DNA of 64,000 nucleotides. It comes from Bacteroides muris (ex Afrizal et al. 2022). GTDB taxonomy: Bacteria > Bacteroidota > Bacteroidia > Bacteroidales > Bacteroidaceae. Positions within the stretch are counted from its first letter, which is position 1, and each line of letters opens with the position of its first letter. The notes beneath the pieces were generated by a model. It was not told where the DNA came from, made no database searches, and saw only the letters and a program-made list of their open reading frames with translations. Shown here one piece after another: positions 6,062-64,000 of the stretch. The DNA lies in the NCBI RefSeq assembly GCF_004793475.1, contig NZ_SRYZ01000011.1:35093-99092 (forward strand), written 5' to 3'. Made by a program: the position numbers and the translations under genes.

Positions 6062-7528
6062 GTGAATAAATTGGTGACGCGGAAAGATAGTATGTGGAAA
6101 TCATTGGACTGGGTGACGATTGTCGTTTACCTGCTGCTGATTGTATTCGGCTGGTTCAGTGTCTGTGGAGCGAGTTATGATTATGGTGACCGTGACTTTC
6201 TGGACTTCTCCACCCGTGCCGGCAAGCAGTTCGTCTGGATTATATGTTCCTTCGGGCTGGGGTTTGTATTGCTGATGCTGGACGATTCCCTCTATGACAT
6301 GTTCTCCTACCTTATATATATAGGGCTGATGCTGTTGCTGATTGTCACGATATTCATTGCGCCCGACACGAAAGGATCGCGGTCGTGGATTATCCTGGGA
6401 CCGGTCAGTTTGCAACCGGCGGAATTTGCCAAGTTTGCCACGGCGCTGGCGCTGGCCAAGTATATGAGTGCCTACTCGTTTACGATGAAGAACTGGAAAA
6501 GCTCCCTTATGCTGGCTTTTTTGATTCTCTTCCCCATGTTGCTGATTATCCTGCAGCGGGAGACGGGTTCGGCATTGGTGTACTCTGCATTTTTTCTGAT
6601 GCTTTATCGGGAGGGAATGCCGGGCGTGGTGCTCTTTTCGGGTATATGTGCGGTGGTCTACTTTGTAGTGGGCATCCGTTTTGATGCGGTAATGATTGCC
6701 GATACGCCGACGCCTATCGGAGAGTTTGCCGTACTGCTGATGGTGCTGCTCTTTGCCGGAGGCATGGTGTGGGTTTATAAAAAGCGTTGGGAACCCACGC
6801 GGAATATCATCGGTGGTTCGTTGGGACTGCTACTTGTGGCTTATCTGACTTCGGAATACGTGGTACCCTTCAACTTGGTGTGGGTACAGTGGGGGCTTTG
6901 TGCACTTGTTGTCGGGTATCTAATCTTTCTTTCTTTAAGCGAGCGCCATTTATCTTATTTTCTGATCGGGCTGTTTGCCTTGGGGTCGATAGGTTTTCTC
7001 TACTCCAGCGACTACTTCTTCAATAAAGTGCTGGAACCTCATCAGCAGATACGTATCAAGGTGGTACTTGGCATGGAGGAGGACCTTGCAGGCGCCGGCT
7101 ATAACGTAAACCAGTCGAAGATAGCCATTGGCTCCGGGGGCCTGACCGGCAAAGGTTTCTTGAACGGTACGCAGACAAAGCTGAAGTATGTGCCGGAGCA
7201 AGATACGGACTTCATCTTTTGCACCGTGGGCGAGGAGGAAGGATTCGTAGGGTCTACGGCTGTACTGTTACTGTTCCTTATTCTTGTCTTACGGCTGATT
7301 GCTGTGGCCGAGCGGCAGCAATCTCCCTTTGGCCGGGTATACGGCTACTCTGTGCTTAGCATATTCTTATTCCATTTATTCATCAATATAGGTATGGTGC
7401 TGGGACTGACTCCTGTTATCGGTATCCCATTGCCTTTCTTCAGTTATGGAGGTTCGTCTCTTTGGGGGTTCACTATCCTGTTGTTTATTTTCCTACGGAT
7501 TGATGCGGGACGTAATCGCCGAATTTAG
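6062..7528 (+). CDS. rodA: RodA, SEDS-family peptidoglycan glycosyltransferase
   Basis: RodA polymerises lipid II as partner of PBP2. The 488-residue protein has about ten or more hydrophobic segments and SEDS signatures: LQPAEFAKFA, QRETGSALVY, the loop LNGTQTKLKYVPEQDTDF and PLPFFSYGGSS near the C-terminus. It is longer than the roughly 370 residues of E. coli RodA because of extra membrane segments in the middle, around residues 200-290. The assigned start is GTG at 6062; an in-frame ATG at 6092 is an alternative. It is the last gene of the cell-shape cluster. Confidence 0.96.
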   Translation: MNKLVTRKDSMWKSLDWVTIVVYLLLIVFGWFSVCGASYDYGDRDFLDFSTRAGKQFVWIICSFGLGFVLLMLDDSLYDMFSYLIYIGLMLLLIVTIFIAPDTKGSRSWIILGPVSLQPAEFAKFATALALAKYMSAYSFTMKNWKSSLMLAFLILFPMLLIILQRETGSALVYSAFFLMLYREGMPGVVLFSGICAVVYFVVGIRFDAVMIADTPTPIGEFAVLLMVLLFAGGMVWVYKKRWEPTRNIIGGSLGLLLVAYLTSEYVVPFNLVWVQWGLCALVVGYLIFLSLSERHLSYFLIGLFALGSIGFLYSSDYFFNKVLEPHQQIRIKVVLGMEEDLAGAGYNVNQSKIAIGSGGLTGKGFLNGTQTKLKYVPEQDTDFIFCTVGEEEGFVGSTAVLLLFLILVLRLIAVAERQQSPFGRVYGYSVLSIFLFHLFINIGMVLGLTPVIGIPLPFFSYGGSSLWGFTILLFIFLRIDAGRNRRI

Positions 7529-53154: not shown

Positions 53155-53739
53155 ATGCAAACCCTATTAAACGACATAGAATTAGATATTCAGGAATTGA
53201 AATGTTTGATGCAGGCCATTTCAAGTGATGCCAATCCGACATTGAGGATTGTGGCAAGACGGAATATCCAGCAGATGAAGGCACGCTTGGAGGCGTTGCA
53301 AGAACTGCTTGAGGAGGCGCCAACGGTTGTTGTGCCGCCCTTAGAGGAACTCCCTGCTGTTACTACTCCTTTGGCCGAATCGGCTTCTCCGGTTGAACCG
53401 GTAGTCCCTGATACAATGAAGATGGTATGTGAGGAACCGGCAACAGTTCATACGGCTGAAGCGCTCCAGACTGTTGCAACTTCGGTGTCTCCTATTTTGG
53501 CGGAACGCATCAAGCCTTCCAAGGACTTGCGGCATGCTATCAGCCTGAACGATTCGTTCCGTTTTGTCCGCGAACTGTTCGCAGGCGATACTGCACGGAT
53601 GAATGAAGTGGTACGCCGTTTGGGTGAGGCTCCTTCTTTGGACAAGGCTATGGATATTTTTGCTTCGGAAGTGCACCCGGATGAAGAAAATGAAGCCGCC
53701 GTCGATTTTATGGAACTCCTCAAAAAATATTTCAGCTAA
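53155..53739 (+). CDS. Conserved hypothetical protein, coiled-coil N-terminus
   Basis: The start at 53155 (MQTLLNDIELDIQELK) gives 194 residues; the longer frame upstream overlaps the promoter. An N-terminal helical or coiled-coil segment (residues 1-55) is followed by a Pro/Val/Glu-rich linker (about 55-120) and a C-terminal helical domain with LRHAISLNDSFRFVRELFAGD and FMELLKKYFS. I know this only as a conserved Bacteroidales protein. It ends 13 bases before rsmI. Confidence 0.75.
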   Translation: MQTLLNDIELDIQELKCLMQAISSDANPTLRIVARRNIQQMKARLEALQELLEEAPTVVVPPLEELPAVTTPLAESASPVEPVVPDTMKMVCEEPATVHTAEALQTVATSVSPILAERIKPSKDLRHAISLNDSFRFVRELFAGDTARMNEVVRRLGEAPSLDKAMDIFASEVHPDEENEAAVDFMELLKKYFS

Positions 53740-53752
53740 ACAACCGATAAGT

Positions 53753-54427
53753 ATGGGAAAACTTTATGTAGTGCCTACTCCGGTAGGAAATTTGGAAGAC
53801 ATGACATTCCGTGCTATCCGGATTCTGAAGGAAGTGGATTTGATACTTGCCGAGGATACACGTACCTCCGGCATATTGCTGAAACACTTTGAAATAAAGA
53901 ATGTGATGCAATCTCACCATAAATTTAATGAACATAAAACGGTTGAAAGTGTTGTTAATAGAATAAAGGGGGGAGAAACTGTAGCTTTGATTTCGGATGC
54001 AGGTACGCCGGGTATATCCGACCCAGGCTTTCTGGTGGTCAGAGAGTGTGTGCGTAATGGTATCGAAGTGCAATGCCTGCCGGGAGCGACAGCTTTTGTG
54101 CCGGCATTGGTGGCTTCCGGATTGCCGAATGAGAGGTTCTGTTTTGAAGGTTTCCTTCCACAGAAGAAAGGAAGGATGACCCGCCTGAAGGCATTGGCCG
54201 AGGAGCGTCGTACCATGGTGTTCTATGAGTCTCCCCACAGATTGGTAAAAGCTTTGACGCAGTTTACCGAACATTTCGGTGCCGAACGTCAGGCATCTGT
54301 TTCGCGGGAAATTTCAAAGGTGCACGAAGAAACGGTGCGTGGAACGCTTACAGAATTAATAGAACATTTCACAGCGAATGAACCGCGTGGTGAAATTGTG
54401 ATTGTAATAGCAGGAATAGACGATTAA
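53753..54427 (+). CDS. rsmI: 16S rRNA (cytidine1402-2'-O)-methyltransferase
   Basis: RsmI methylates C1402 of 16S rRNA. The start at 53753 (MGKLYVVPTPVGNLED) is the family start; the longer open frame is antisense overlap. The 224-residue tetrapyrrole-methylase fold shows LAEDTRTSG, ISDAGTPGISDPG and LPGATAFVPALVASGLP. The product is somewhat shorter than E. coli RsmI (286), lacking a C-terminal extension, as is usual in Bacteroidetes. Confidence 0.95.
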   Translation: MGKLYVVPTPVGNLEDMTFRAIRILKEVDLILAEDTRTSGILLKHFEIKNVMQSHHKFNEHKTVESVVNRIKGGETVALISDAGTPGISDPGFLVVRECVRNGIEVQCLPGATAFVPALVASGLPNERFCFEGFLPQKKGRMTRLKALAEERRTMVFYESPHRLVKALTQFTEHFGAERQASVSREISKVHEETVRGTLTELIEHFTANEPRGEIVIVIAGIDD

Positions 54428-54461
54428 ATAACTTCATTAACCAAACGTAAAACGAAAGCGT

Positions 54462-55340
54462 ATGAAAAAGTTAGCAGTTTTAATTGTATGCGCGGCTGTA
54501 ATGGCTTCGTGTGACAGCTTCTCTGGTGGCAATAAGAATCAGTTGAAAGCTGAAAATGATTCTTTATTGATGGAACTGACTCAGCGTAATGCTGAATTGG
54601 ACGAGATGATGGGCACTTTCAATGATATTTCAGAGGGATTCCGCCAGATTAATGCAGCGGAGAGCCGTGTGGATTTGCAACGTGGCGCCGTGGCAGAAGG
54701 TTCTTTGAATGCCAAGCAGCAGATTGCGTCGGACATTGAGTTTATCCGTAAACAGATGGAAGAGAATAAGGAGCAGATTGCCAAACTGCAGTCCATGTTG
54801 AAGAACAGTAAGAATAACTCTGCCCAGTTAAAGAGAGCCGTAGAATCCCTGACTCAGGAGTTGGTGGCAAAGACCCAGCGTATTGAGGAATTGCAGGCTG
54901 AATTGGCTTCCAAGAATATCCGTATTCAGGAACTGGATGCTGCTGTGACCGGTTTGTCTACTGAGAAGGAGGAATTGACTGCCGAAAATGAGGCGAAGGC
55001 TCAAACCGTTGCCGAGCAAGATAAGGCACTTAATACAGCTTGGTTTGTGTTTGGTACAAAGAAGGAGTTGAAAAATCAGAAGATATTGACAAACACCGGA
55101 CTTTTCAAAAAAGGTCAGGTGCTGAAGGATTCTGATATCAATAAGGATTACTTTACACAAGTGGATATCCGTACGACAAAAGAGATTAAACTATACTCTA
55201 AAGATGCTGATATCTTGACTACTCATCCTGCTGGCTCTTATGTGTTGGAGAAAGATGATAAAGGACAGCTGACTTTGAAGATTACAAATCCGAAAGACTT
55301 CTGGAGTGTGTCCAAGTATCTGGTAATCCAAGTAAAATAA
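54462..55340 (+). CDS. Coiled-coil lipoprotein, Cbp1-like adhesin family
   Basis: The 292-residue protein has a lipoprotein signal (VCAAVMASC, Cys17), then a long coiled coil (about residues 28-195, heptads such as AKLQSMLKNSKNNSAQLKRA) and a C-terminal domain of about 90 residues beginning TAWFVFGTKKELKNQKIL. The pattern resembles the Bacteroides protein family annotated after Cbp1, a collagen-binding glycoprotein of B. fragilis. A DSL near residue 33 fits the Bacteroides O-glycosylation motif D(S/T)(A/I/L/V/M/T). Binding of collagen by this copy is not shown by the sequence. Confidence 0.8.
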   Translation: MKKLAVLIVCAAVMASCDSFSGGNKNQLKAENDSLLMELTQRNAELDEMMGTFNDISEGFRQINAAESRVDLQRGAVAEGSLNAKQQIASDIEFIRKQMEENKEQIAKLQSMLKNSKNNSAQLKRAVESLTQELVAKTQRIEELQAELASKNIRIQELDAAVTGLSTEKEELTAENEAKAQTVAEQDKALNTAWFVFGTKKELKNQKILTNTGLFKKGQVLKDSDINKDYFTQVDIRTTKEIKLYSKDADILTTHPAGSYVLEKDDKGQLTLKITNPKDFWSVSKYLVIQVK

Positions 55341-55426
55341 CACTGTTATAGACTGATACAGAACGGACGCAGGTTATTGGAATTGATAATCTGCGTCTAT
55401 TTCTATATATCCCTCTCCTTTAAATT

Positions 55427-56125
55427 ATGGCATCCCAATATAAGAACCTGTTTTTTGACCTGGACGACACGCTTTGGGCATTTTCCCTTAATGCACGCGA
55501 TACATTTGAAGAGATGTATCATAAGTATGATTATGACCGTTTCTTCCGCTCTTTCCAGCATTTCTATACTCTTTATCAGCATCGTAATGTAGAGCTGTGG
55601 GAAGAATACGGCAGAGGCCAGGTCAGTAAGGAAGAGTTGAACCGCCAGCGTTTTCTATATCCTCTGGAGGCAGTAGGGGCGGGGGATGTTGCTTTGGCCG
55701 AGGCTTTTTCTGGTGATTTCTTTTCGGTAATTCCCACAAAAAGTCGGCTGATGCCGCATGCGTATGAGGTACTGGAATATTTGGCAGGGAAATATAACCT
55801 CTATATCCTTTCCAACGGCTTCCAGGAGCTGCAATGTCATAAGATGCGTTCGGCAGGCATTGACCACTTTTTTAAGAAGATTGTTCTCTCTGATGACATC
55901 GGTATCTTGAAGCCCTGGCCCGAAATTTTTCATTTTGCCCTTTCTGCCACGCAATCTGAGGTACATGATTCTTTGATGATAGGCGATAGTTGGGAGAATG
56001 ATGTGGCAGGAGCCAAAGGAGTGGGTATGCACCAAGTGTTTTATAATGTAACCGGAAAGGAAGAACTGCCTTTTTTGCCGACTTATCATATCAGTAATCT
56101 GAAAGAATTGATGCAGATTCTGTGA
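55427..56125 (+). CDS. YjjG-family noncanonical pyrimidine nucleotidase (HAD)
   Basis: This HAD-superfamily phosphatase probably removes phosphate from modified or noncanonical nucleotides. The 232-residue protein has motif I FFDLDDTLW, motif II ILSNG, motif III lysine in LKPWPEIF and motif IV MIGDSWENDVAGAK. The N-terminal helical cap is of the C1 type. It is followed 52 bases later by the MarC gene, which has its own -7 element. Confidence 0.92.
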   Translation: MASQYKNLFFDLDDTLWAFSLNARDTFEEMYHKYDYDRFFRSFQHFYTLYQHRNVELWEEYGRGQVSKEELNRQRFLYPLEAVGAGDVALAEAFSGDFFSVIPTKSRLMPHAYEVLEYLAGKYNLYILSNGFQELQCHKMRSAGIDHFFKKIVLSDDIGILKPWPEIFHFALSATQSEVHDSLMIGDSWENDVAGAKGVGMHQVFYNVTGKEELPFLPTYHISNLKELMQIL

Positions 56126-56143
56126 CATTGAAATTTTTAGTTG

Positions 56144-56151
56144 TACTTTTG
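56144..56151 (+). promoter_or_regulatory. Putative -7 element for the marC-like gene
   Basis: TACTTTTG fits TAnnTTTG and lies 26 bases before the ATG at 56178. Confidence 0.5.
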
Positions 56152-56177
56152 TCTGCAGAAACGTATATTATACAGCT

Positions 56178-56843
56178 ATGGACACAATCTTACCTTTCAC
56201 TCTACTTTGTTTTACCTCCTTCTTTACGTTGACAAATCCTCTCGGCACCATGCCGGTGTTTTTGACCATGACGCATGGAATGACAGACCGTGAACGGCAG
56301 TCGGTAGTATCGCGCGCCACTCTGGTTGCCTTTATTACGATTATGGTTTTTACGTTTGCAGGGCAGTTTCTCTTTAAGTTCTTCGGTATCTCTACCAATG
56401 GTTTCCGTATTGCCGGTGGAGTTATTATCTTTAAGATTGGCTTCGATATGCTGCAAGCCCGTTATACCCCAATGAAACTGAAAGATGAGGAAATCAAGAC
56501 TTATGCCGATGATATTTCCATTACTCCTCTTGGAATTCCGATGCTTTGTGGTCCCGGTGCTATAGCCAATGCCATTGTACTGATGCAGGATGCCCATACC
56601 ATTCAGATGAAAGGAGTTCTTATAGGAATGATTGCCTTTATTTATCTGATTACCTTTTTTATATTGCGTGCTTCCACGCGGTTGGTCACAATCCTGGGTG
56701 AGACGGGAAACAATGTGATGATGCGTCTGATGGGACTTATTCTGATGGTTATTGCCGTTGAGTGTTTTGTCAGCGGAGTGAAACCGATATTGGTGGATAT
56801 ATTGAAAGAAGGAGGCATACCATCACTGGCACACCTCCTCTAA
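56178..56843 (+). CDS. MarC family (NAAT) membrane protein
   Basis: This inner-membrane protein of about six helices and 221 residues belongs to the MarC/UPF0056 family, whose transport role is uncertain. Family blocks are FFTLTNPLGTMPVFLTMT near the N-terminus, GFRIAGGVIIFKIGFDML and ITPLGIPMLCGPGAIANAI. It is the last housekeeping gene before the variable SusC/D region and converges on the SusD gene. Confidence 0.93.
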   Translation: MDTILPFTLLCFTSFFTLTNPLGTMPVFLTMTHGMTDRERQSVVSRATLVAFITIMVFTFAGQFLFKFFGISTNGFRIAGGVIIFKIGFDMLQARYTPMKLKDEEIKTYADDISITPLGIPMLCGPGAIANAIVLMQDAHTIQMKGVLIGMIAFIYLITFFILRASTRLVTILGETGNNVMMRLMGLILMVIAVECFVSGVKPILVDILKEGGIPSLAHLL

Positions 56844-56901
56844 ACACTTTATTTATAAAAACACATTGGGAGAATTCCCAAGTTCTTTAGGCTACTATTG
56901 A

Positions 56902-58419
56902 TTAATAGCCTGGATTTTGTTCTATGTTCGGATTGGCATTGATTTCACCAACGGGAATTAACGGGAGCGCTTTCTTGGAGTCGCGGTTGAATGTACGTGC
57001 TTCTTCGCTCAATACGTCATGCCATCCTCTGTCATTAACGTCCGTGTAGCGTGTAACGGTTTCACCTCGGCGCATAACATCGAAGTAGCGCTGTCCTTCA
57101 CCTACAAGTTCCTTGCGGCGCTCAATGTAGATGCGGTCTAATGTGATGTTTCCGCTGGTTACTTGTTTGCTTTCATCCGTTGTGCGGTTGGATATGATAT
57201 CGTTCAGCAGGTTGGCAGCCTTGTTCTTGTTTCCGGCTTGGAAAGCTGCTTCTGCTGCTGACAAGTAAACTTCTGACAAGCGCAGCAACGGGACATTGGA
57301 GTAACGTACATCTCCGTTTACAGCAGGCATTTTGTTGATGTAAACTTTGCGTTTGTCAAATCCTCCTGCTGCCGCTGCCAGTAATATGTCGTTACGGATG
57401 TCTGCCGGGTCGGATGTAAGCATGTCAGAGAAGTCTTTTGTGACAATTACATCTCCATATCCGGGAGAAGCGCCAGCCTTGTCTGCATATAAGTAGGCAA
57501 TACCTTCACGGTCTGTCCAGTCAGTATTGTTGTTGATGGAAATCTCGAACATGATTTCTTTTGAATGATTGGCATCACTTTTGCTCCATGCAGCAACATA
57601 TTCGGACGGTTCCCAAAGTTTGTAAGACGAGTTTGATATGATGTTTTCAGCTACGGATAAAGCCTTGCTCCATTCGCCTTTTGTCATATATACACGTACC
57701 TGCAAGGCTTTGGCAGCCCAAAGGTTGACATAGCCCACTTCATTGGTTTTGGGCAGTGCATTTGAATTGATTGCATCTGTCAAATCCTTCTCAATAGCCT
57801 CATAACATTGAGCTACTGTGCTGCGGCTTGGCTTTTCTGTCGATTCCAGTGGGGAGGTAGCGATGGGCACACCGAGTGAGCTACCTTGATCTACCGTATA
57901 AGGTTTACCGTAAATGCGTGTAAGGTCAAACAGTGCCATGGCACGCAGAACTTTTGCTTCTGCATCATATTGGTCAATAGTGGCTTTTGCCTCTGCCGCA
58001 TCGGTCAGGTTGCCACTTTCTGCTGCTTGAATCAGACGGTTGGCGCGTGCAATGACTACATAAGGCATCTGCCATACAGCTGTTGAGGTGGTGAAATTGT
58101 CGGCAGTTGTATATTCCATATAGTAGTAGAAGTTTGCTCTTCCACTTCCACCGTTATATTCATATTGGATATCTTCCCCTCTCATGTCACCGTATACGAA
58201 CATGAGGCGTCCATAATAATTAATCAGGCTACTGTTACCTTTAACGGCAGCATAAAGTCCCGTCCGCACATTGGCCAGATCATCGCTGTTCTTGATTGCG
58301 GTTTCAGCATCTATTCCGTCTGCGGGTGACTGATCCAGCCAACTGTTGAGGCATGATGAAGTGCTGACTGCCATAGCTGCGCAAAGCGTTGCTGTGTATA
58401 ATGTCTTTAATATTTTCAT
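56902..58419 (-). CDS. SusD/RagB-like surface lipoprotein of the silent pair
   Basis: This surface lipoprotein lids the SusC transporter and binds ligand. The 505-residue protein is intact: signal and lipobox VSTSSC (Cys23), LDQSPADGIDAETAI, the SusD fold with ARANRLIQAAE and RLSEVYLSAAEAAFQAG, and a final PNIEQNPGY. The gene starts 17 bases after the SusC stop, and with no promoter between them it should be expressed only with SusC. In the present orientation both lack a promoter. Confidence 0.95.
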   Translation of the reverse strand: MKILKTLYTATLCAAMAVSTSSCLNSWLDQSPADGIDAETAIKNSDDLANVRTGLYAAVKGNSSLINYYGRLMFVYGDMRGEDIQYEYNGGSGRANFYYYMEYTTADNFTTSTAVWQMPYVVIARANRLIQAAESGNLTDAAEAKATIDQYDAEAKVLRAMALFDLTRIYGKPYTVDQGSSLGVPIATSPLESTEKPSRSTVAQCYEAIEKDLTDAINSNALPKTNEVGYVNLWAAKALQVRVYMTKGEWSKALSVAENIISNSSYKLWEPSEYVAAWSKSDANHSKEIMFEISINNNTDWTDREGIAYLYADKAGASPGYGDVIVTKDFSDMLTSDPADIRNDILLAAAAGGFDKRKVYINKMPAVNGDVRYSNVPLLRLSEVYLSAAEAAFQAGNKNKAANLLNDIISNRTTDESKQVTSGNITLDRIYIERRKELVGEGQRYFDVMRRGETVTRYTDVNDRGWHDVLSEEARTFNRDSKKALPLIPVGEINANPNIEQNPGY

Positions 58420-58436
58420 TTTCGTATCTTTATTAG

Positions 58437-61271
58437 TTAGAAATTCAATTCTATTCCGAATGTATATGTTCTCAATGCCGGAGTCTCAAAAGTGCATAGT
58501 CCGTCTACACGCATTTCCGGATCTACAAATAGGTCTTTGGACTTCCATGTAAGCAGGTTGGAACCAGAGAAGTAGATTCTGGCCTTGCTAAGTCCAAGCT
58601 TGCTGATGTAGTTTTGCGGAATGCTTACACCTAATGTGAGGTTCTTCAGACGTAGATAATCAGTAGGCATCAGCCAGCGTGAAGACAGTGAAGCTGCGCT
58701 TCCATATTCAAATTTAGGCAATGTGGCATTTGTATCGCCCGGTCCGGTCCACATCTTTGAGATGTCATAGTATGTTGGTACGGCACCACCATATAAATAT
58801 GAACCGCCATTGGAGTGCTGCCAAGTGGAGTAGTCAAAAGCATCACCACCCAATGAATAAGTGAAAGTGAAGCCTAAGTCTATAAACTTCCATTTGAGGT
58901 TGTTGGTAAGACCGCCTTCTATACTAGCCTGATGCTTGCCTACAATAGTTTTGTTGGCTTCAGAGATATTTGTAGTTGTTTTGCGGGCATTCTCTGTTCC
59001 GTCATTCAGGTAGAACATTTCTTTACCGGTCTCAGCGTCGACTCCGGCGTATTCATAAACGTAGTATGAATAGTAAGGCTCGCCTACACGGTGAATCAGT
59101 GGTCCTGATACGATTTCATTCTGCTGGCCATCTAATTGGGTCAGTTTGTTGCTGTTATGTGCCATGTTCAGAGAAGTGGTCCACGTGAAATCCTTGTTTC
59201 TGAAATTGGTTGATGTAATGGTCAACTCAAAACCGGAGTTCTTCAGTGAACCGATGTTTTGCGGAGTGGTATACCCATAACTGCTATCATAATATCCGCC
59301 AACTTGTGATACGGGAAGGTCGTATATGAGGTCACTGGTTTTGCGTTGATAGTAGTCGAATGTTACAGAGATACGGTCAATGAATGAAAGGTCGAGACCG
59401 ATATTCCATGTTTTGTTCTTTTCCCATTTCAAGTCCGGATTTGCAATTCCGACGATTGACATTCCTGACTGTCCATTGTATATGATCCCATATTTATAGA
59501 GATTCATATAAGCATAATAATCTGATGGTTGCGTTCCGTTTACACCGTATGACACACGTAGCTTTCCATCTGTCAATACACTTTTGACGGGATTCAGGAA
59601 ACTTTCGTCTATGAATCTCCATGCTCCGGAAACTGACCAGAAACTTCCCCACCGGTTTTCTCTAGCCAAACGTGAACTTCCGTCGGTACGATAACTGAAA
59701 CCGAGATAATATCTGTCTGCATAGTTGTAATTGGCACGTCCGAGGAACGAAGTCATGCGATAGCTCTGCCTGTTGGTTTCGGCACTTGTCGAACCGGCAT
59801 TTGTCAATTCGTACAAATCACCCGGATAGTCTTGGCCTGCCATGTAGTTGAAAGCATATTCCGTATCTTGTGTTTCAAAACCAAGCAGGGCATCAATATT
59901 ATGCAGACCGAAAGAGTTGATGTAAGAAAGTTGAGTTTGTGTATTCAACTGGTCATTACGATTGACAATACGCTGCATAACACCGCCTGGGGCACCGTTG
60001 TTTGAGTGTCGATCCCAAAGAACATCATTGGTACCTTGTGCGTAATCATAAGCAATCTTTTCACTTAAATTCAACTTATCCCAAATATTATAAGTCAACT
60101 TGATTGTATTGAATGCCTTCATTAGGGTATAAACGTCGGAACTGTGTTCTCTTTCATACAAAGGATTGACTCCAAATACACCGCAACCATTGTTTAATGT
60201 GCCGTCTTCATTATAAGGAGTTGATGAGGGATTTTGGAAGAATGCGTAATTGGCCACAGGTCCATCATAGGAGGTAGCTTCATTGGTTTTGTTTTGTCTT
60301 ACTTTTGAGAATTGGCTTGTAACCTGAACTTCAAAGTCTCCAAACTTATGAGTGAGGTTTGCATTACCAGTGAAACGTTCCAGACCTTGTTTGTAAATGA
60401 TACCTTCCTGATTGGTATAAGCTACTGAGGTGTAGAACTTGGTACGGTCGTTACCGCCAGATACGCTCAGCTGGTAGTTCTGATGAGAACCGTTACGGAA
60501 AAGCAGGTCTTTCCAATCCGTCCATCCGGTCGAGGGTTTTGAAGCAAAATCCTCGATGTTTTGGTCTGCAAAAGTTGCGGCATCTGCGTCAGACATGTTT
60601 CCGGTGTATAACCCATAATTCTTGAGACCGGTCCATAAGAGTTCACGGCGCGAGTCACCGTCGAGCATAGGACGATAATCTATTGCCATGTTTGAGAAAC
60701 CCCAGTCAGAGCGGAAACTTACATTTGTTTTGCCTTGTTTTCCGCTTTTCGTCGTAATGACCACAACACCGTTGGCAGCACGCGAGCCGTAAAGAGAGGC
60801 CGCCGCCGCATCTTTGATAACTGTGATAGACTCGATGTCATTGGTATTGAGTGAAGACAAAATATCAGTTCCTGCATCACTATAAGTGAACTCGGATAAG
60901 TCTCCACTTGTGACCGGTGTTCCGTCAATAACATAAAGCGGATTGTTTTCGGCATTGATGGAACCCATACCACGTACACGGATACTGCTTACAGAACCAG
61001 GATTACTTGAACTTGAGCCAAAAGTAACACCAGCGACATTACCAGAAAGTTTGTCGGCAACAGAAAGAACAGGTACATCTTCCAAGGTGGAAGTGTTTAC
61101 GGTAGAAGCAGCTCCAGTAAATGATGCTTTTTTAAATGTACCGTAACCGGTAACCACAACCTCTTCAAGCAGCTCAGAATCGGATTTCAAAATTACCTTT
61201 ACATGAGGTTTAATCGTTACTTCTTGGGTTTGCATACCAACAAACGAAATCACCAGAGTTTTCGCGGAACT
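58437..61271 (-). CDS. SusC-like TonB receptor body without 5' end (silent copy)
   Basis: The frame enters at the inverted repeat (SSAKTLVISFVGMQTQEV, from 61271) and runs without a break to 58437. It carries the end of the carboxypeptidase-D-like domain, the LLEEVVVTGYGT TonB-box region, the plug (ADKLSGNVAGVTFG, IRVRGMGSIN, GSRAANGVVVITTKSG) and a full barrel ending LRTYTFGIELNF. Signal peptide, start codon and promoter are absent, and an in-frame TAA lies about three codons upstream of the repeat. Joining to the module at 63745 would restore about 1010 residues. The gene is thus stored, not decayed. Confidence 0.93.
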   Translation of the reverse strand, partial: SSAKTLVISFVGMQTQEVTIKPHVKVILKSDSELLEEVVVTGYGTFKKASFTGAASTVNTSTLEDVPVLSVADKLSGNVAGVTFGSSSSNPGSVSSIRVRGMGSINAENNPLYVIDGTPVTSGDLSEFTYSDAGTDILSSLNTNDIESITVIKDAAAASLYGSRAANGVVVITTKSGKQGKTNVSFRSDWGFSNMAIDYRPMLDGDSRRELLWTGLKNYGLYTGNMSDADAATFADQNIEDFASKPSTGWTDWKDLLFRNGSHQNYQLSVSGGNDRTKFYTSVAYTNQEGIIYKQGLERFTGNANLTHKFGDFEVQVTSQFSKVRQNKTNEATSYDGPVANYAFFQNPSSTPYNEDGTLNNGCGVFGVNPLYEREHSSDVYTLMKAFNTIKLTYNIWDKLNLSEKIAYDYAQGTNDVLWDRHSNNGAPGGVMQRIVNRNDQLNTQTQLSYINSFGLHNIDALLGFETQDTEYAFNYMAGQDYPGDLYELTNAGSTSAETNRQSYRMTSFLGRANYNYADRYYLGFSYRTDGSSRLARENRWGSFWSVSGAWRFIDESFLNPVKSVLTDGKLRVSYGVNGTQPSDYYAYMNLYKYGIIYNGQSGMSIVGIANPDLKWEKNKTWNIGLDLSFIDRISVTFDYYQRKTSDLIYDLPVSQVGGYYDSSYGYTTPQNIGSLKNSGFELTITSTNFRNKDFTWTTSLNMAHNSNKLTQLDGQQNEIVSGPLIHRVGEPYYSYYVYEYAGVDAETGKEMFYLNDGTENARKTTTNISEANKTIVGKHQASIEGGLTNNLKWKFIDLGFTFTYSLGGDAFDYSTWQHSNGGSYLYGGAVPTYYDISKMWTGPGDTNATLPKFEYGSAASLSSRWLMPTDYLRLKNLTLGVSIPQNYISKLGLSKARIYFSGSNLLTWKSKDLFVDPEMRVDGLCTFETPALRTYTFGIELNF
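61252..61271. repeat. Inverted repeat IR-L of the invertible segment
   Basis: ACCAGAGTTTTCGCGGAACT is the exact reverse complement of 63946-63965. It lies in the silent SusC gene at the codons for SSAKTLV. Similarity continues outside the segment (ATTTCGT, TTGGTATGCA), where both SusC genes are homologous, and stops abruptly inside the segment. Confidence 0.92.
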
Positions 61272-61750
61272 ATAATATTTTTATTTTATTAGTAATCAGT
61301 CAATTATGCTATATAGTAGAAATAGCTATAGCGAAATTCTCTTTCTTACAAGGTATATGTATAGGGATACAATGCATAAAACCTTACTGTAGTGATACTA
61401 TTTGTAGGATTAACAACCAGATTATCAAATGCATATCATGAAGTTAATACTCTGCATAAAGATTTTAAATGATTCTTCTTATATGAAGAATATCTTTTGT
61501 CAACATCTGTCATCCTAGTTGCTTTCAATGAAGCATTTACTCTACATTGTCATTTTATCAGCGAAAGTACTAAAGTCTATGTAAAAGAATATTTCAATAG
61601 CTTCAAAGAAAAGTAAACTCAAAACTTTGTGATTAGCCAAACAATCAAGACAATTGTTGTTTCTTCATAACAGTTTTTATCACATTTCCACCTGCTCCTT
61701 GCATCCCTCTATTCATCGGCATTACAAACGCTGTGGAAGCAATGCAAAAG

Positions 61751-61775
61751 TGTGGAAGCAAAATTTGCTTCCACA
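61751..61775. repeat. 25-bp perfect palindrome (TGTGGAAGCAAA arms)
   Basis: TGTGGAAGCAAA, one A, then TTTGCTTCCACA: two perfect 12-bp arms. A further direct copy of TGTGGAAGCAA starts 19 bases to the left at 61732. It could bind a dimeric protein, for instance an accessory factor of the recombinase, or be a transcript hairpin. Confidence 0.7.
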
Positions 61776-61865
61776 CCTCTAATCAGCCTTAAATATTGAT
61801 AGTACATCAATGTCAATCTTCTATTTATGTAACACTATAGCTGTTTGATTCTCAGTAGCTTTTTA

Positions 61866-62014
61866 CTGCAAGATTTTGCAAACCTATTGCAGCGATACTG
61901 CAAAGCTGTTGCAGTGGTACTGCAAACTAATATGCAGTGCGGCTGCAAGCAATATGCAGTGATGCTGCAAACAGTTTGCAGTAGTACTGCAAAACGTATG
62001 CAGCAAGTTTGCAG
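61866..62014. repeat. 22-bp-periodic dyad array (TGCAG...CTGCA type)
   Basis: A 15-bp dyad TGCAG-n5-CTGCA occurs at 61888, 61910, 61933, 61955 and 61977, with a weaker sixth copy at 61999: steps of 22, 23, 22, 22 and 22. Half-copies flank it at 61866 and 62010. It lies 87 bases past the recombinase stop codon, inside the invertible segment. Confidence 0.82.
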
Positions 62015-62100
62015 CTAGCCGGCTGAAACAGAATAGTGAATGGACAGACTTTAAAGGAGAAGTATATGACTAATGATATGAAAGTATAGTATCGACCATG

Positions 62101-63291
62101 CTAAGTTCGTGTTTTTTTAGGTAAAGGCGTGAATGCATGGTTCTTTTCTAAATCATGTACTATAGTCATATCCATTACATTTGTATACACTTGTGTGGTT
62201 TTAACGCTTTTATGCCCCAATAATTTTTGCACCGTTGTAATGTTTACTCCATTATAAATCAATAGAGTAGCATTAGTATGGCGGGCGGTGTGAAATGAAA
62301 TCTTTTTTGACAAACCGGCTAGGCGGGAAATCACAATTAAATCCTTGTTCACATTAGAGTTGTCCCTTAAATGAAAGAAACTTTGTAAGTCATCCCGATA
62401 TTTGTCTAGAATAGCAAGTCCTTTCCCTTCGAATAAGAGATAAAGTGGCAACCTTACTTCTGTACTTGTCTTTATGGATTTATAAACCAGCCAGGGTTCT
62501 TGACGAATCTCCATGATGTTATCAGGTGATAAACTGGTAAAATCAGAATATCTCATTCCTGCATAACAACAAAACAAGAATGCATCTAAAGTTTTCTGCA
62601 ATTTTGTGTATCTGCCAGCCAAGCTTAATTTCTCCAACTTCTCCAACTCTTCAGGAGACAAGTGTGTATGCTTGTTTTCTATAGTTTTAATCTTGTACTT
62701 TCGAAAAGCGTATTTTTGTATCTCCATATAATCCTTGTTGATGGCGACATTTATATGTCGCTTCAGATGCTTCATGTGCTTGGCTATCGTATTTGTATGA
62801 TAACCTCTTGTTTGCAAGAAATATTCAAAGGAGGATATGAATTCGAATGTCAAATCAGAAAAGGTCACATCCTTTTTGAACTGTTGTAATAATGAAAGAG
62901 TGGAGAGATGATTTCGTTTTGTACTTTCTTTTAGAGTAGAGTTTACTATCTCTTGCCTAAAAAAAGGAATAAAAGAGGTTTTGCTCTCGCTTGTACTCAA
63001 AACATCCTTTAGTAACTCTAGTGAAATACGCCTTCCTTGCTGCCACAATTCCAACTCTTTTTTTTCTATCATAGCCATAAACTCATATATCAATCTATTC
63101 AGCGCATCTGCATTGGGATGATTCTTCACGACAAGCTTTTTATTGTCCCACTGTTCCGGCTTTAGATAGACTTTGGTTGAGAAGTACTTTTTCTTTCTGT
63201 CCAAATAAGCTTCCACTTGTACTAATGCCATTCCTTTTTTATTCAGGCTTTTTTTTCTGTTGCACACTAAATTGTAAATAATCTTGCTCAT
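62101..63291 (-). CDS. Tyrosine site-specific recombinase (invertase)
   Basis: The 396-residue protein has an arm-type DNA-binding N-terminus (about residues 1-95), a SAM-like core-binding domain (105-190) and a complete catalytic domain: Arg247 (YAGMRYSD), His334-x-x-Arg337 (HTARH), His360 (LLGHKS) and the nucleophile Tyr369 (TQVYTN). It resembles Bacteroides Tsr-type invertases and transposon integrases. No phage, conjugation or excision genes are nearby; instead it is enclosed by inverted repeats, so its likely job is flipping the segment it lies in. Confidence 0.93.
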
Positions 63292-63744
63292 TTTACTTGA
63301 TTTAAATTAATACCAATGACAAATAAGACGATATTCTGTACTCTATGAGGTTAGAATAAGAATTAATATCTCTAAAAAGTGTCTTTTTGTGTTTAGCTAT
63401 TAATCGGTATTTAGCCTCCGGAAACTCTCAATTTGTTTCAAAGTCAGGTCTATTCTCTGTTTTAGCGGCTTGTTTATTAACCATTTTGTTTTAAAACATG
63501 TGTATTCCTTGGGAAAATCACCCTAAAAGAGGAAATCATAGTGATAGTAAACATAAGCTAGTTTAGGTTTTTTAAGTATGAAAAATCTGTTATTAAGCAT
63601 AAAGTAACATGTTTAATTAACAAATTGATAGATTTACAAGGTTTTTTCAATAAAATAGTTGTTCGTTTCAGTTTTATTAATATATTTGCACTTTGTTAGA
63701 GTAAAGAAACAATTAATGTAAAGTTAAACTTTAAGAGAGAATTT
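63292..63744. other. Divergent spacer between recombinase and SusC module
   Basis: About 450 AT-rich bases contain the SusC promoter (63659-63688) and its leader. I see no ORF. A palindromic TTTTGTTTTAAAACA near 63488-63502 may be a regulator site. No clear TAnnTTTG faces the recombinase. Confidence 0.6.
63659..63688 (+). promoter_or_regulatory. Promoter carried by the invertible SusC module
   Basis: TTG at 63659-63661 and TATATTTG at 63681-63688 are 19 bases apart, a good Bacteroides -33/-7 pair. It lies 56 bases before the SusC ATG and inside the segment, so it moves with the inversion. Confidence 0.7.
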
Positions 63745-64000
63745 ATGAAAAGAAAATTAATGCTGTTATTGGCCTGTCTTTTTGTCGGAATAGGCCTAGT
63801 AACTGCCCAAACCCAGAAGGTTACAGGTGTTGTAATTTCTGAAGAAGACGGGCAGCCAGTTATTGGAGCCTCTGTATTGGTAAAAGGTACACAAATTGGT
63901 GCCATTACCGGTGTAGATGGTGATTTTACATTACCAAACGTACCAAGTTCCGCGAAAACTCTGGTAATTTCGTATATTGGTATGCAGACGCAGGAGGTGG
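63745..64000 (+). CDS. 5' module of an expressed SusC-like TonB receptor (runs off the window)
   Basis: ATG at 63745 opens a normal SusC start: signal peptide MKRKLMLLLACLFVGIG ending VTAQ, then the N-terminal carboxypeptidase-D-like domain (VTGVVISEEDGQPVIGASVLV, GAITGVDGDFTLPNV). The inverted repeat falls at codons 68-74. After it the frame continues VISYIGMQTQEV, close to the silent copy (VISFVGMQTQEV), and leaves the window at residue 85. The receptor body and its SusD lie outside. In the orientation seen here this gene is the expressed one. Confidence 0.93.
   Translation, partial: MKRKLMLLLACLFVGIGLVTAQTQKVTGVVISEEDGQPVIGASVLVKGTQIGAITGVDGDFTLPNVPSSAKTLVISYIGMQTQEV

What the first reader, a model, noticed from the sequence alone, without database searches (positions are those of the whole stretch)
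61252..63965. Self-contained inversion switch that moves the 5' end of SusC between two SusC/SusD loci
Perfect 20-bp inverted repeats lie at the same codons of two SusC genes that face away from each other. Only one (right) has a promoter, start and signal peptide. A complete tyrosine recombinase is inside the segment. Flipping the 2.7-kb segment joins the same promoter and first ~70 codons in frame to the left SusC body, turning one transporter pair on and the other off. B. fragilis is known to shuffle SusC/RagA genes by DNA inversion, so the principle is established; this two-way version with the recombinase inside the flipped segment may be new in detail.
Basis: partly seen in the sequence, partly recalled or inferred. 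Interest (0 to 1): 0.93.

Follow-up and report, generated by a model that had tools for sequence, protein, structure and literature searches.

The report
One flipping front end, many transporters
A 2.7-kb piece of DNA that carries one shared gene front end and its own recombinase gene lies in opposite directions in this Bacteroides and in a close relative, and it is predicted to flip so that the cell likely makes only one of at least four alternative nutrient transporters at a time.

Summary
In detail: perfect 20-bp inverted repeats (61252-61271, 63946-63965) lie at the same codon of two SusC genes, only the right one has a start and a signal-peptide-like front, and a complete tyrosine recombinase lies between them. 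The two-way reading is too small. The window ends at a contig end, and another contig of the same genome begins at the same repeat and carries three more headless SusC/SusD pairs: one head, at least four bodies. A close relative (recombinase 97% identical) carries the segment inverted; one in-silico inversion between two of its sites makes 10.5 kb of the window a single colinear match. Of 119 searched genomes of the genus, 73 have the recombinase; near it, 51 of those 73 show both a head and a headless body. Orthologous bodies are headed in one species and headless in another in 33 of 76 pairs. Within genomes the first nine site bases agree between head and headless copies. This is a SusC/SusD shufflon, a kind known from B. 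fragilis. Catalysis and expression switching remain inferred; no reads were available.

The parts
56902..58419 (-). SusD partner of the left body
   Evidence: PF07980 and PF14322
58437..61271 (-). left SusC body, headless (944 aa from the site)
   Evidence: Plug and beta-barrel domains, TIGR04056 from profile position 44 on; no start or front end upstream
61252..61271 (-). recombination site, left copy
61272..62100 (.). spacer between left site and recombinase; part of the invertible segment
   Evidence: abuts the left body here and another body in G079
62101..63291 (-). tyrosine recombinase, 396 aa
   Evidence: PF17293, PF13102, PF00589
63292..63744 (+). divergent intergenic stretch with conserved leader and a TAnnTTTG motif at 63681-63688 (motif recalled as the Bacteroides -7 element)
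   Evidence: alignment of 49 genomes; motif somewhere upstream of the head in 49 of 49
63745..63945 (+). head: 67 codons, signal-peptide-like start (by eye) and first part of a CarboxypepD_reg-like domain
   Evidence: PF13715; translation
63946..63965 (+). recombination site, right copy; the body continues on contig C139

Best explanation
A single SusC head (conserved leader, signal-peptide-like start and first 67 codons) sits with a tyrosine recombinase gene on a 2.7-kb segment bounded by perfect 20-bp inverted repeats, the segment lies in opposite orientations in this genome and in a close relative, and the recombinase is predicted to flip it so that the head is joined in frame to, and likely switches on, one of at least four headless SusC/SusD pairs at a time. 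Shown here: the anatomy; three more bodies with SusD partners on contig C139; the inverted arrangement in relatives; headed and headless versions of the same body in different species; identity of the first nine site bases between head and headless copies within genomes. Inferred: that this recombinase catalyses the exchange; that strand exchange falls in the first bases of the site; that headless bodies are silent because they lack leader, start and signal peptide; and that successive inversions between oppositely oriented sites can bring the head to the bodies lying in direct orientation on the right.
For: One in-silico inversion of G079 between two sites turns two opposite-strand matches of the window into one of 10,529 bases at 95.4%. 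G009/G059 and G033/G069 also show the head-recombinase segment reversed against its flanks; in G033/G069 the two bodies swap states. 33 of 76 orthologous body pairs (80% or more) are headed in one genome and headless in the other; 10 of 22 at 95% or more (one of the 33 rests on C139:1, whose joint lies at a contig end). First three codons of the site are identical between head and headless copies in 76 of 76, 77 of 77 and 77 of 77 same-residue comparisons although the fifth-codon-position base varies between genomes. Site 20-mers of head and headless copies are identical in 48 of 76. Recombinase start to site is 656-662 bases in 45 of 49 aligned genomes. Leader in 65 of 73 recombinase-positive against 15 of 46 recombinase-negative genomes. 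In those 15, SusC sites found were 19 headed, 1 headless.
Against: No reads: only one arrangement of this genome was seen, and the contig break at the site is explained by a 62-base repeat alone. Comparisons are between species, so they show past inversion, not its rate or present activity. Of 73 genomes, 8 showed a head only, 7 a headless body only, 7 neither (one search then found heads in 3 of the 7). G087 has a headless body but no recombinase at the threshold used. Some headed copies share up to about 40 bases past the site with the head type, not with the body, so exchange is not always confined to the first nine bases. Catalytic residues were read by eye only.
Confidence: 0.85

Rival explanations
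1. A relic: inversion happened in the past, but the locus is now fixed and the headless bodies are 5'-truncated leftovers.
For: No read evidence of two arrangements in one culture. Several relatives have recombinase frames with stops inside, so fixed versions exist.
Against: In this genome the recombinase is intact and the four bodies are open from the site for 944, 1000, 924 and 1003 codons (and body 6626), which decaying leftovers would not keep. Site bases stay matched within genomes while varying between them.
Confidence: 0.08
2. The rearrangements come from another agent: general homologous recombination in the extended repeat, or a master invertase elsewhere in the genome.
For: The inverted pair extends to 53 nt at 87%, and identity patches reach about 40 bases past the site in some pairs. 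In B. fragilis one enzyme, Tsr0667, acts on several SusC/SusD clusters (passage of PMC4747536).
Against: The recombinase lies in the segment at a nearly fixed distance from the head and co-occurs with the leader. Recombinase-negative relatives keep a head on 19 of 20 SusC sites found. The site occurs only at this locus in this genome.
Confidence: 0.06
3. An assembly artefact made the inverted layout.
For: The window ends at a contig end at the repeat.
Against: Single-contig or long-contig relatives show the same layout (for example G079, G057, G073, G062, G081, G021, G040), as do 16 of 20 loci of named records.
Confidence: 0.01

Closest known systems
Bacteroides fragilis SusC/SusD shufflon with invertase Tsr0667, including region EE (Nakayama-Imaohji 2009 not held; passages of PMC4747536, PMC11852207 and PMC5729914 seen)
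   Same: SusC/SusD pairs, multiple inverted sites, tyrosine recombinase, one expressed arrangement at a time
   Different: By the PMC5729914 passage the B. fragilis repeats overlap the start codon downstream of an invertible promoter, and by PMC4747536 one enzyme serves three clusters and nine other regions; here the site is inside the gene at codon 68, promoter and signal peptide travel with the head, the recombinase rides in the same segment and the site occurs only at this locus
Bacteroides thetaiotaomicron SusC-like rearrangement locus of Porter et al. 2020 (recalled; paper not held)
   Same: as recalled, SusC genes rearranged next to a recombinase gene
   Different: could not be compared; it may be the same family, since B. 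faecis (L017) has the module
R64 shufflon (Rci)
   Same: several sites, one recombinase, one gene completed by alternative segments
   Different: there alternative C-terminal segments are selected (passage of PMC11852207); here the constant front flips between large fixed bodies with their SusD partners

Membership tests
Tyrosine recombinase | arm-binding, SAM-like and catalytic integrase domains | tested here: met
   PF17293, PF13102 and PF00589 above cut-off
Tyrosine recombinase | R-K-H-R-H-Y catalytic residues | tested here: inconclusive
   candidates seen by eye in the translation; no alignment to a solved enzyme was made
Shufflon (multiple DNA inversion system) | three or more recombination sites, some in inverted orientation, with alternative segments of one gene | tested here: met
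   one site inverted and four in direct orientation over C22 and C139 (4 forward, 1 reverse)
Shufflon (multiple DNA inversion system) | several arrangements arise from one genome | not testable with these tools
   no reads; arrangements differ between species
B. fragilis Tsr0667 SusC/SusD shufflon | cluster of SusC/SusD pairs | tested here: met
   four bodies, each followed by SusD
B. fragilis Tsr0667 SusC/SusD shufflon | repeats overlap the start codon downstream of an invertible promoter | tested here: not met
   site at codon 68; head with leader lies inside the segment
B. fragilis Tsr0667 SusC/SusD shufflon | recombinase is the ortholog of Tsr0667 | not tested
Simple invertible promoter (inverton) | repeats in non-coding DNA flanking a promoter only | tested here: not met
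   repeats are inside coding sequence, and coding sequence and the recombinase gene move

The most novel reading that the evidence does not exclude
The head plus recombinase is a conserved, self-moving expression site for Bacteroides nutrient transporters: it flips among resident SusC/SusD bodies and, through direct-repeat sites, also excises and captures SusC/SusD cassettes, so that an open-ended, horizontally exchanged repertoire shares one promoter and one signal peptide, somewhat as integron cassettes share one promoter. Pointers: flanks of G000 and G079 are about 96% identical while inner bodies differ; bodies 97% identical occur in two genomes whose recombinases are 60% identical (no housekeeping baseline was measured, and only pairs at 80% or more were looked at); one genome carries an exact 8-kb inverted duplicate of a stretch that runs from site to site, which could also be an assembly error.
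Probability: 0.3. Interest if true: 0.75.

Novelty: new member of a known kind. Interest (0 to 1): 0.55.

Why it matters
SusC/SusD pairs are major outer-membrane nutrient importers of Bacteroides (general knowledge), and passages of PMC10939037 name SusC as a T-cell target and SusC/SusD-linked inversions among those that differ most in bowel disease. A module that likely lets a cell show one of several importers, with its recombinase in 73 of 119 searched genomes of the genus, would be a general source of surface variation. One body here resembles RagA and lies in one cluster with a predicted M64 peptidase, so the choice may include peptide import. The fixed anatomy and mapped site make switching testable by simple PCR.

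Tried and rejected
Two-way switch: too small, since C139 and G079 hold more bodies. Contig break as evidence of a mixed population: rejected, because C139:1 and C139:6626 share their first 62 bases, enough to break an assembly. RNA element in 60900-64000: Rfam gave 0 matches at gathering score. TGCAG repeats downstream of the recombinase as a general part: of 10 genomes checked only G000 (14) and G079 (13) have a dense cluster; G057 has 16 spread over 6,957 bases, the others 0 to 4. Named paper for this module: three papers sought by id (Nakayama-Imaohji 2009, Porter 2020, Milman 2023) are not held. Eight paper searches listed, among titles and abstract starts, no description of this intragenic module; I looked at passages of 11 of the listed papers only, and many papers are outside the library, so I claim no absence from print.

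Row handling: the survey used one stretch of 6.3-20 kb around the best recombinase hit in 64 genomes, 40-80 kb in 8, and the last 14 kb of the window for G000; contig ends cut many of them. A head was searched by a SusC motif, so it misses variants: one search found heads by tblastn in G042, G111 and G099, none in G030, G093, G104, G107. One site of G018 counts as headed only because of a run of N. 145 bodies were found and 138 longer than 250 residues went into the pair counts, where the three C139 bodies were scored as headless. Methionine has one codon, so the value 1.00 at codon 12 means nothing. The 10 headed/headless pairs were chosen by me from the list.

Full report
The observation. 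The site occurs five times in the 4.39-Mb assembly with up to two mismatches, two in the window and three on contig C139, and never for the reversed pattern. The recombinase frame 62101-63291 has three domains of a phage-integrase-type tyrosine recombinase. The right frame opens at ATG 63745 and carries a CarboxypepD_reg-like domain within which the site lies. The left body has Plug and beta-barrel domains and no front end.

Beyond the window. The window ends where contig C22 ends. C139 begins exactly at the site; its first 55 bases equal the last 55 of the window. C139 carries three SusC bodies at 1, 6626 and 17392, each in phase from the site, the last with one mismatch in it. Each is followed by a SusD gene. 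By elimination the head most likely joins the body at C139:1, since the other two have resolved spacers upstream; that is an inference about the assembly. The body at 6626 is closest among solved structures to RagA (608 bits), and a predicted M64 peptidase lies downstream of it.

A relative in the other orientation. G079, a one-contig genome with a 97% identical recombinase, has one head and six bodies. The window is colinear with it from 53490 to 61276 and inverted from 61222 to its end; C139 from 15697 on matches the right flank on the same G079 contig, which places C139 to the right of the window. One in-silico inversion of G079, between its left site and the first site past the recombinase, turns the two opposite matches into one of 10,529 bases at 95.4%. 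Two more pairs show the head-recombinase segment reversed against its flanks: G009/G059 (97-99% identity) and G033/G069 (75-88%). In G033/G069 the two bodies also swap states.

Survey. Of 119 genomes of the genus, 73 have the recombinase at E 1e-60 or better. Near it a divergent head was found in 59, a headless body in 58, both in 51, neither in 7. Recombinase start to site measures 656-662 bases in 45 of 49 aligned cases. The genus is Bacteroides by inference: contigs of G084, G042 and G001 have the lengths of records named B. fluxus, B. cellulosilyticus and B. faecis. Of 20 loci in named records, 16 show head plus headless body by the two scans; L013, L019, L026 and L027 do not. In the family search 25 of 201 genomes have the recombinase at 1e-100, 16 of them in three other genera; I looked at 3 of those 16, all of one genus, and in all 3 the recombinase lies between a head and a headless body.

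What the sites say. Head and headless copies of one genome use the same codon at the first three positions of the site in 76 of 76, 77 of 77 and 77 of 77 comparisons with the same residue. Identity is then 0.73-0.91 over codons 3-11 and mostly 0.5-0.7 from codon 13 on, with a few values outside. The third base of the second codon varies between genomes (commonest base 0.45-0.49) but not within them, as strand exchange across these bases would enforce. In ten chosen pairs of one body headed here and headless there, identity begins at or a few bases before the site. Against a clean picture, some headed copies, such as G086, share up to about 40 bases past the site with the head type, perhaps through heteroduplex repair.

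States differ between species. Of 76 body pairs from different genomes at 80% or more, 33 are headed in one and headless in the other, 9 headed in both, 34 headless in both; at 95% or more the numbers are 10, 4 and 8 of 22. The leader is in 65 of 73 recombinase-positive and 15 of 46 recombinase-negative genomes (Fisher p 2e-10; relatedness not corrected). In stretches of all 15 of the latter, 19 SusC sites are headed and one (G087) is headless; G088 gave none.

How it most likely works. The recombinase is predicted to pair two oppositely oriented sites and invert what lies between. Inversion between the two window sites moves the head to the left body. Bodies on the right lie in direct orientation; a larger inversion carrying the head with its current body, then a smaller one, would bring the head to each of them (reasoning, not shown). 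Headless bodies lack leader, start and signal peptide, so they are likely silent. Direct-repeat sites could also allow excision of a pair; the different inner bodies of G000 and G079 between alike flanks fit that but do not prove it.

Known or new. Shufflon-type inversion of SusC/SusD clusters by Tsr0667 is in print for B. fragilis (passages of PMC4747536, PMC11852207 and PMC5729914 seen; primary paper not held). There the repeats overlap the start codon downstream of an invertible promoter, and the enzyme serves several regions. Here the site is at codon 68 and the enzyme rides in the segment. I recall a B. thetaiotaomicron SusC rearrangement from Porter et al. 2020 that may be the same family; I could not read it. 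So I file this as a new member of a known kind, with the comparative anatomy as the addition.

Noticed in passing
window 61877-62003: A dense cluster of TGCAG/CTGCA palindromic repeats lies between recombinase and left site; G079 has it too, most other checked genomes do not.
   Followed up: partly
window 63692-63744: The untranslated leader of the head is nearly invariant across 49 genomes, more than its surroundings, which may point to RNA-level regulation.
   Followed up: no
L069, L070, L143, L144 (G073): An 8,051-base, 100% identical inverted duplicate runs from one site to the next on both sides of the recombinase; cassette duplication or assembly error.
   Followed up: partly
L006 5058-5666, 14662-15153, 15739-16965: Spacers between SusC/SusD pairs hold unrelated genes: a Zeta-toxin/AAA kinase-like frame, a DUF3990 frame and an AAA_14/DUF4143 ATPase.
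   Followed up: no
L102 (G030): The recombinase stands without a detected head or SusC body next to frames resembling the window's TP_methylase and MarC genes (53603-54427, 56178-56843), as if the module kept its place after losing its bodies.
   Followed up: no
L147-L149, L151, L152 (G003, G050, G101, G052, G026): Relatives without the recombinase carry two or three SusC genes of this family within 20 kb, each with its own head, and their site bases differ.
   Followed up: yes
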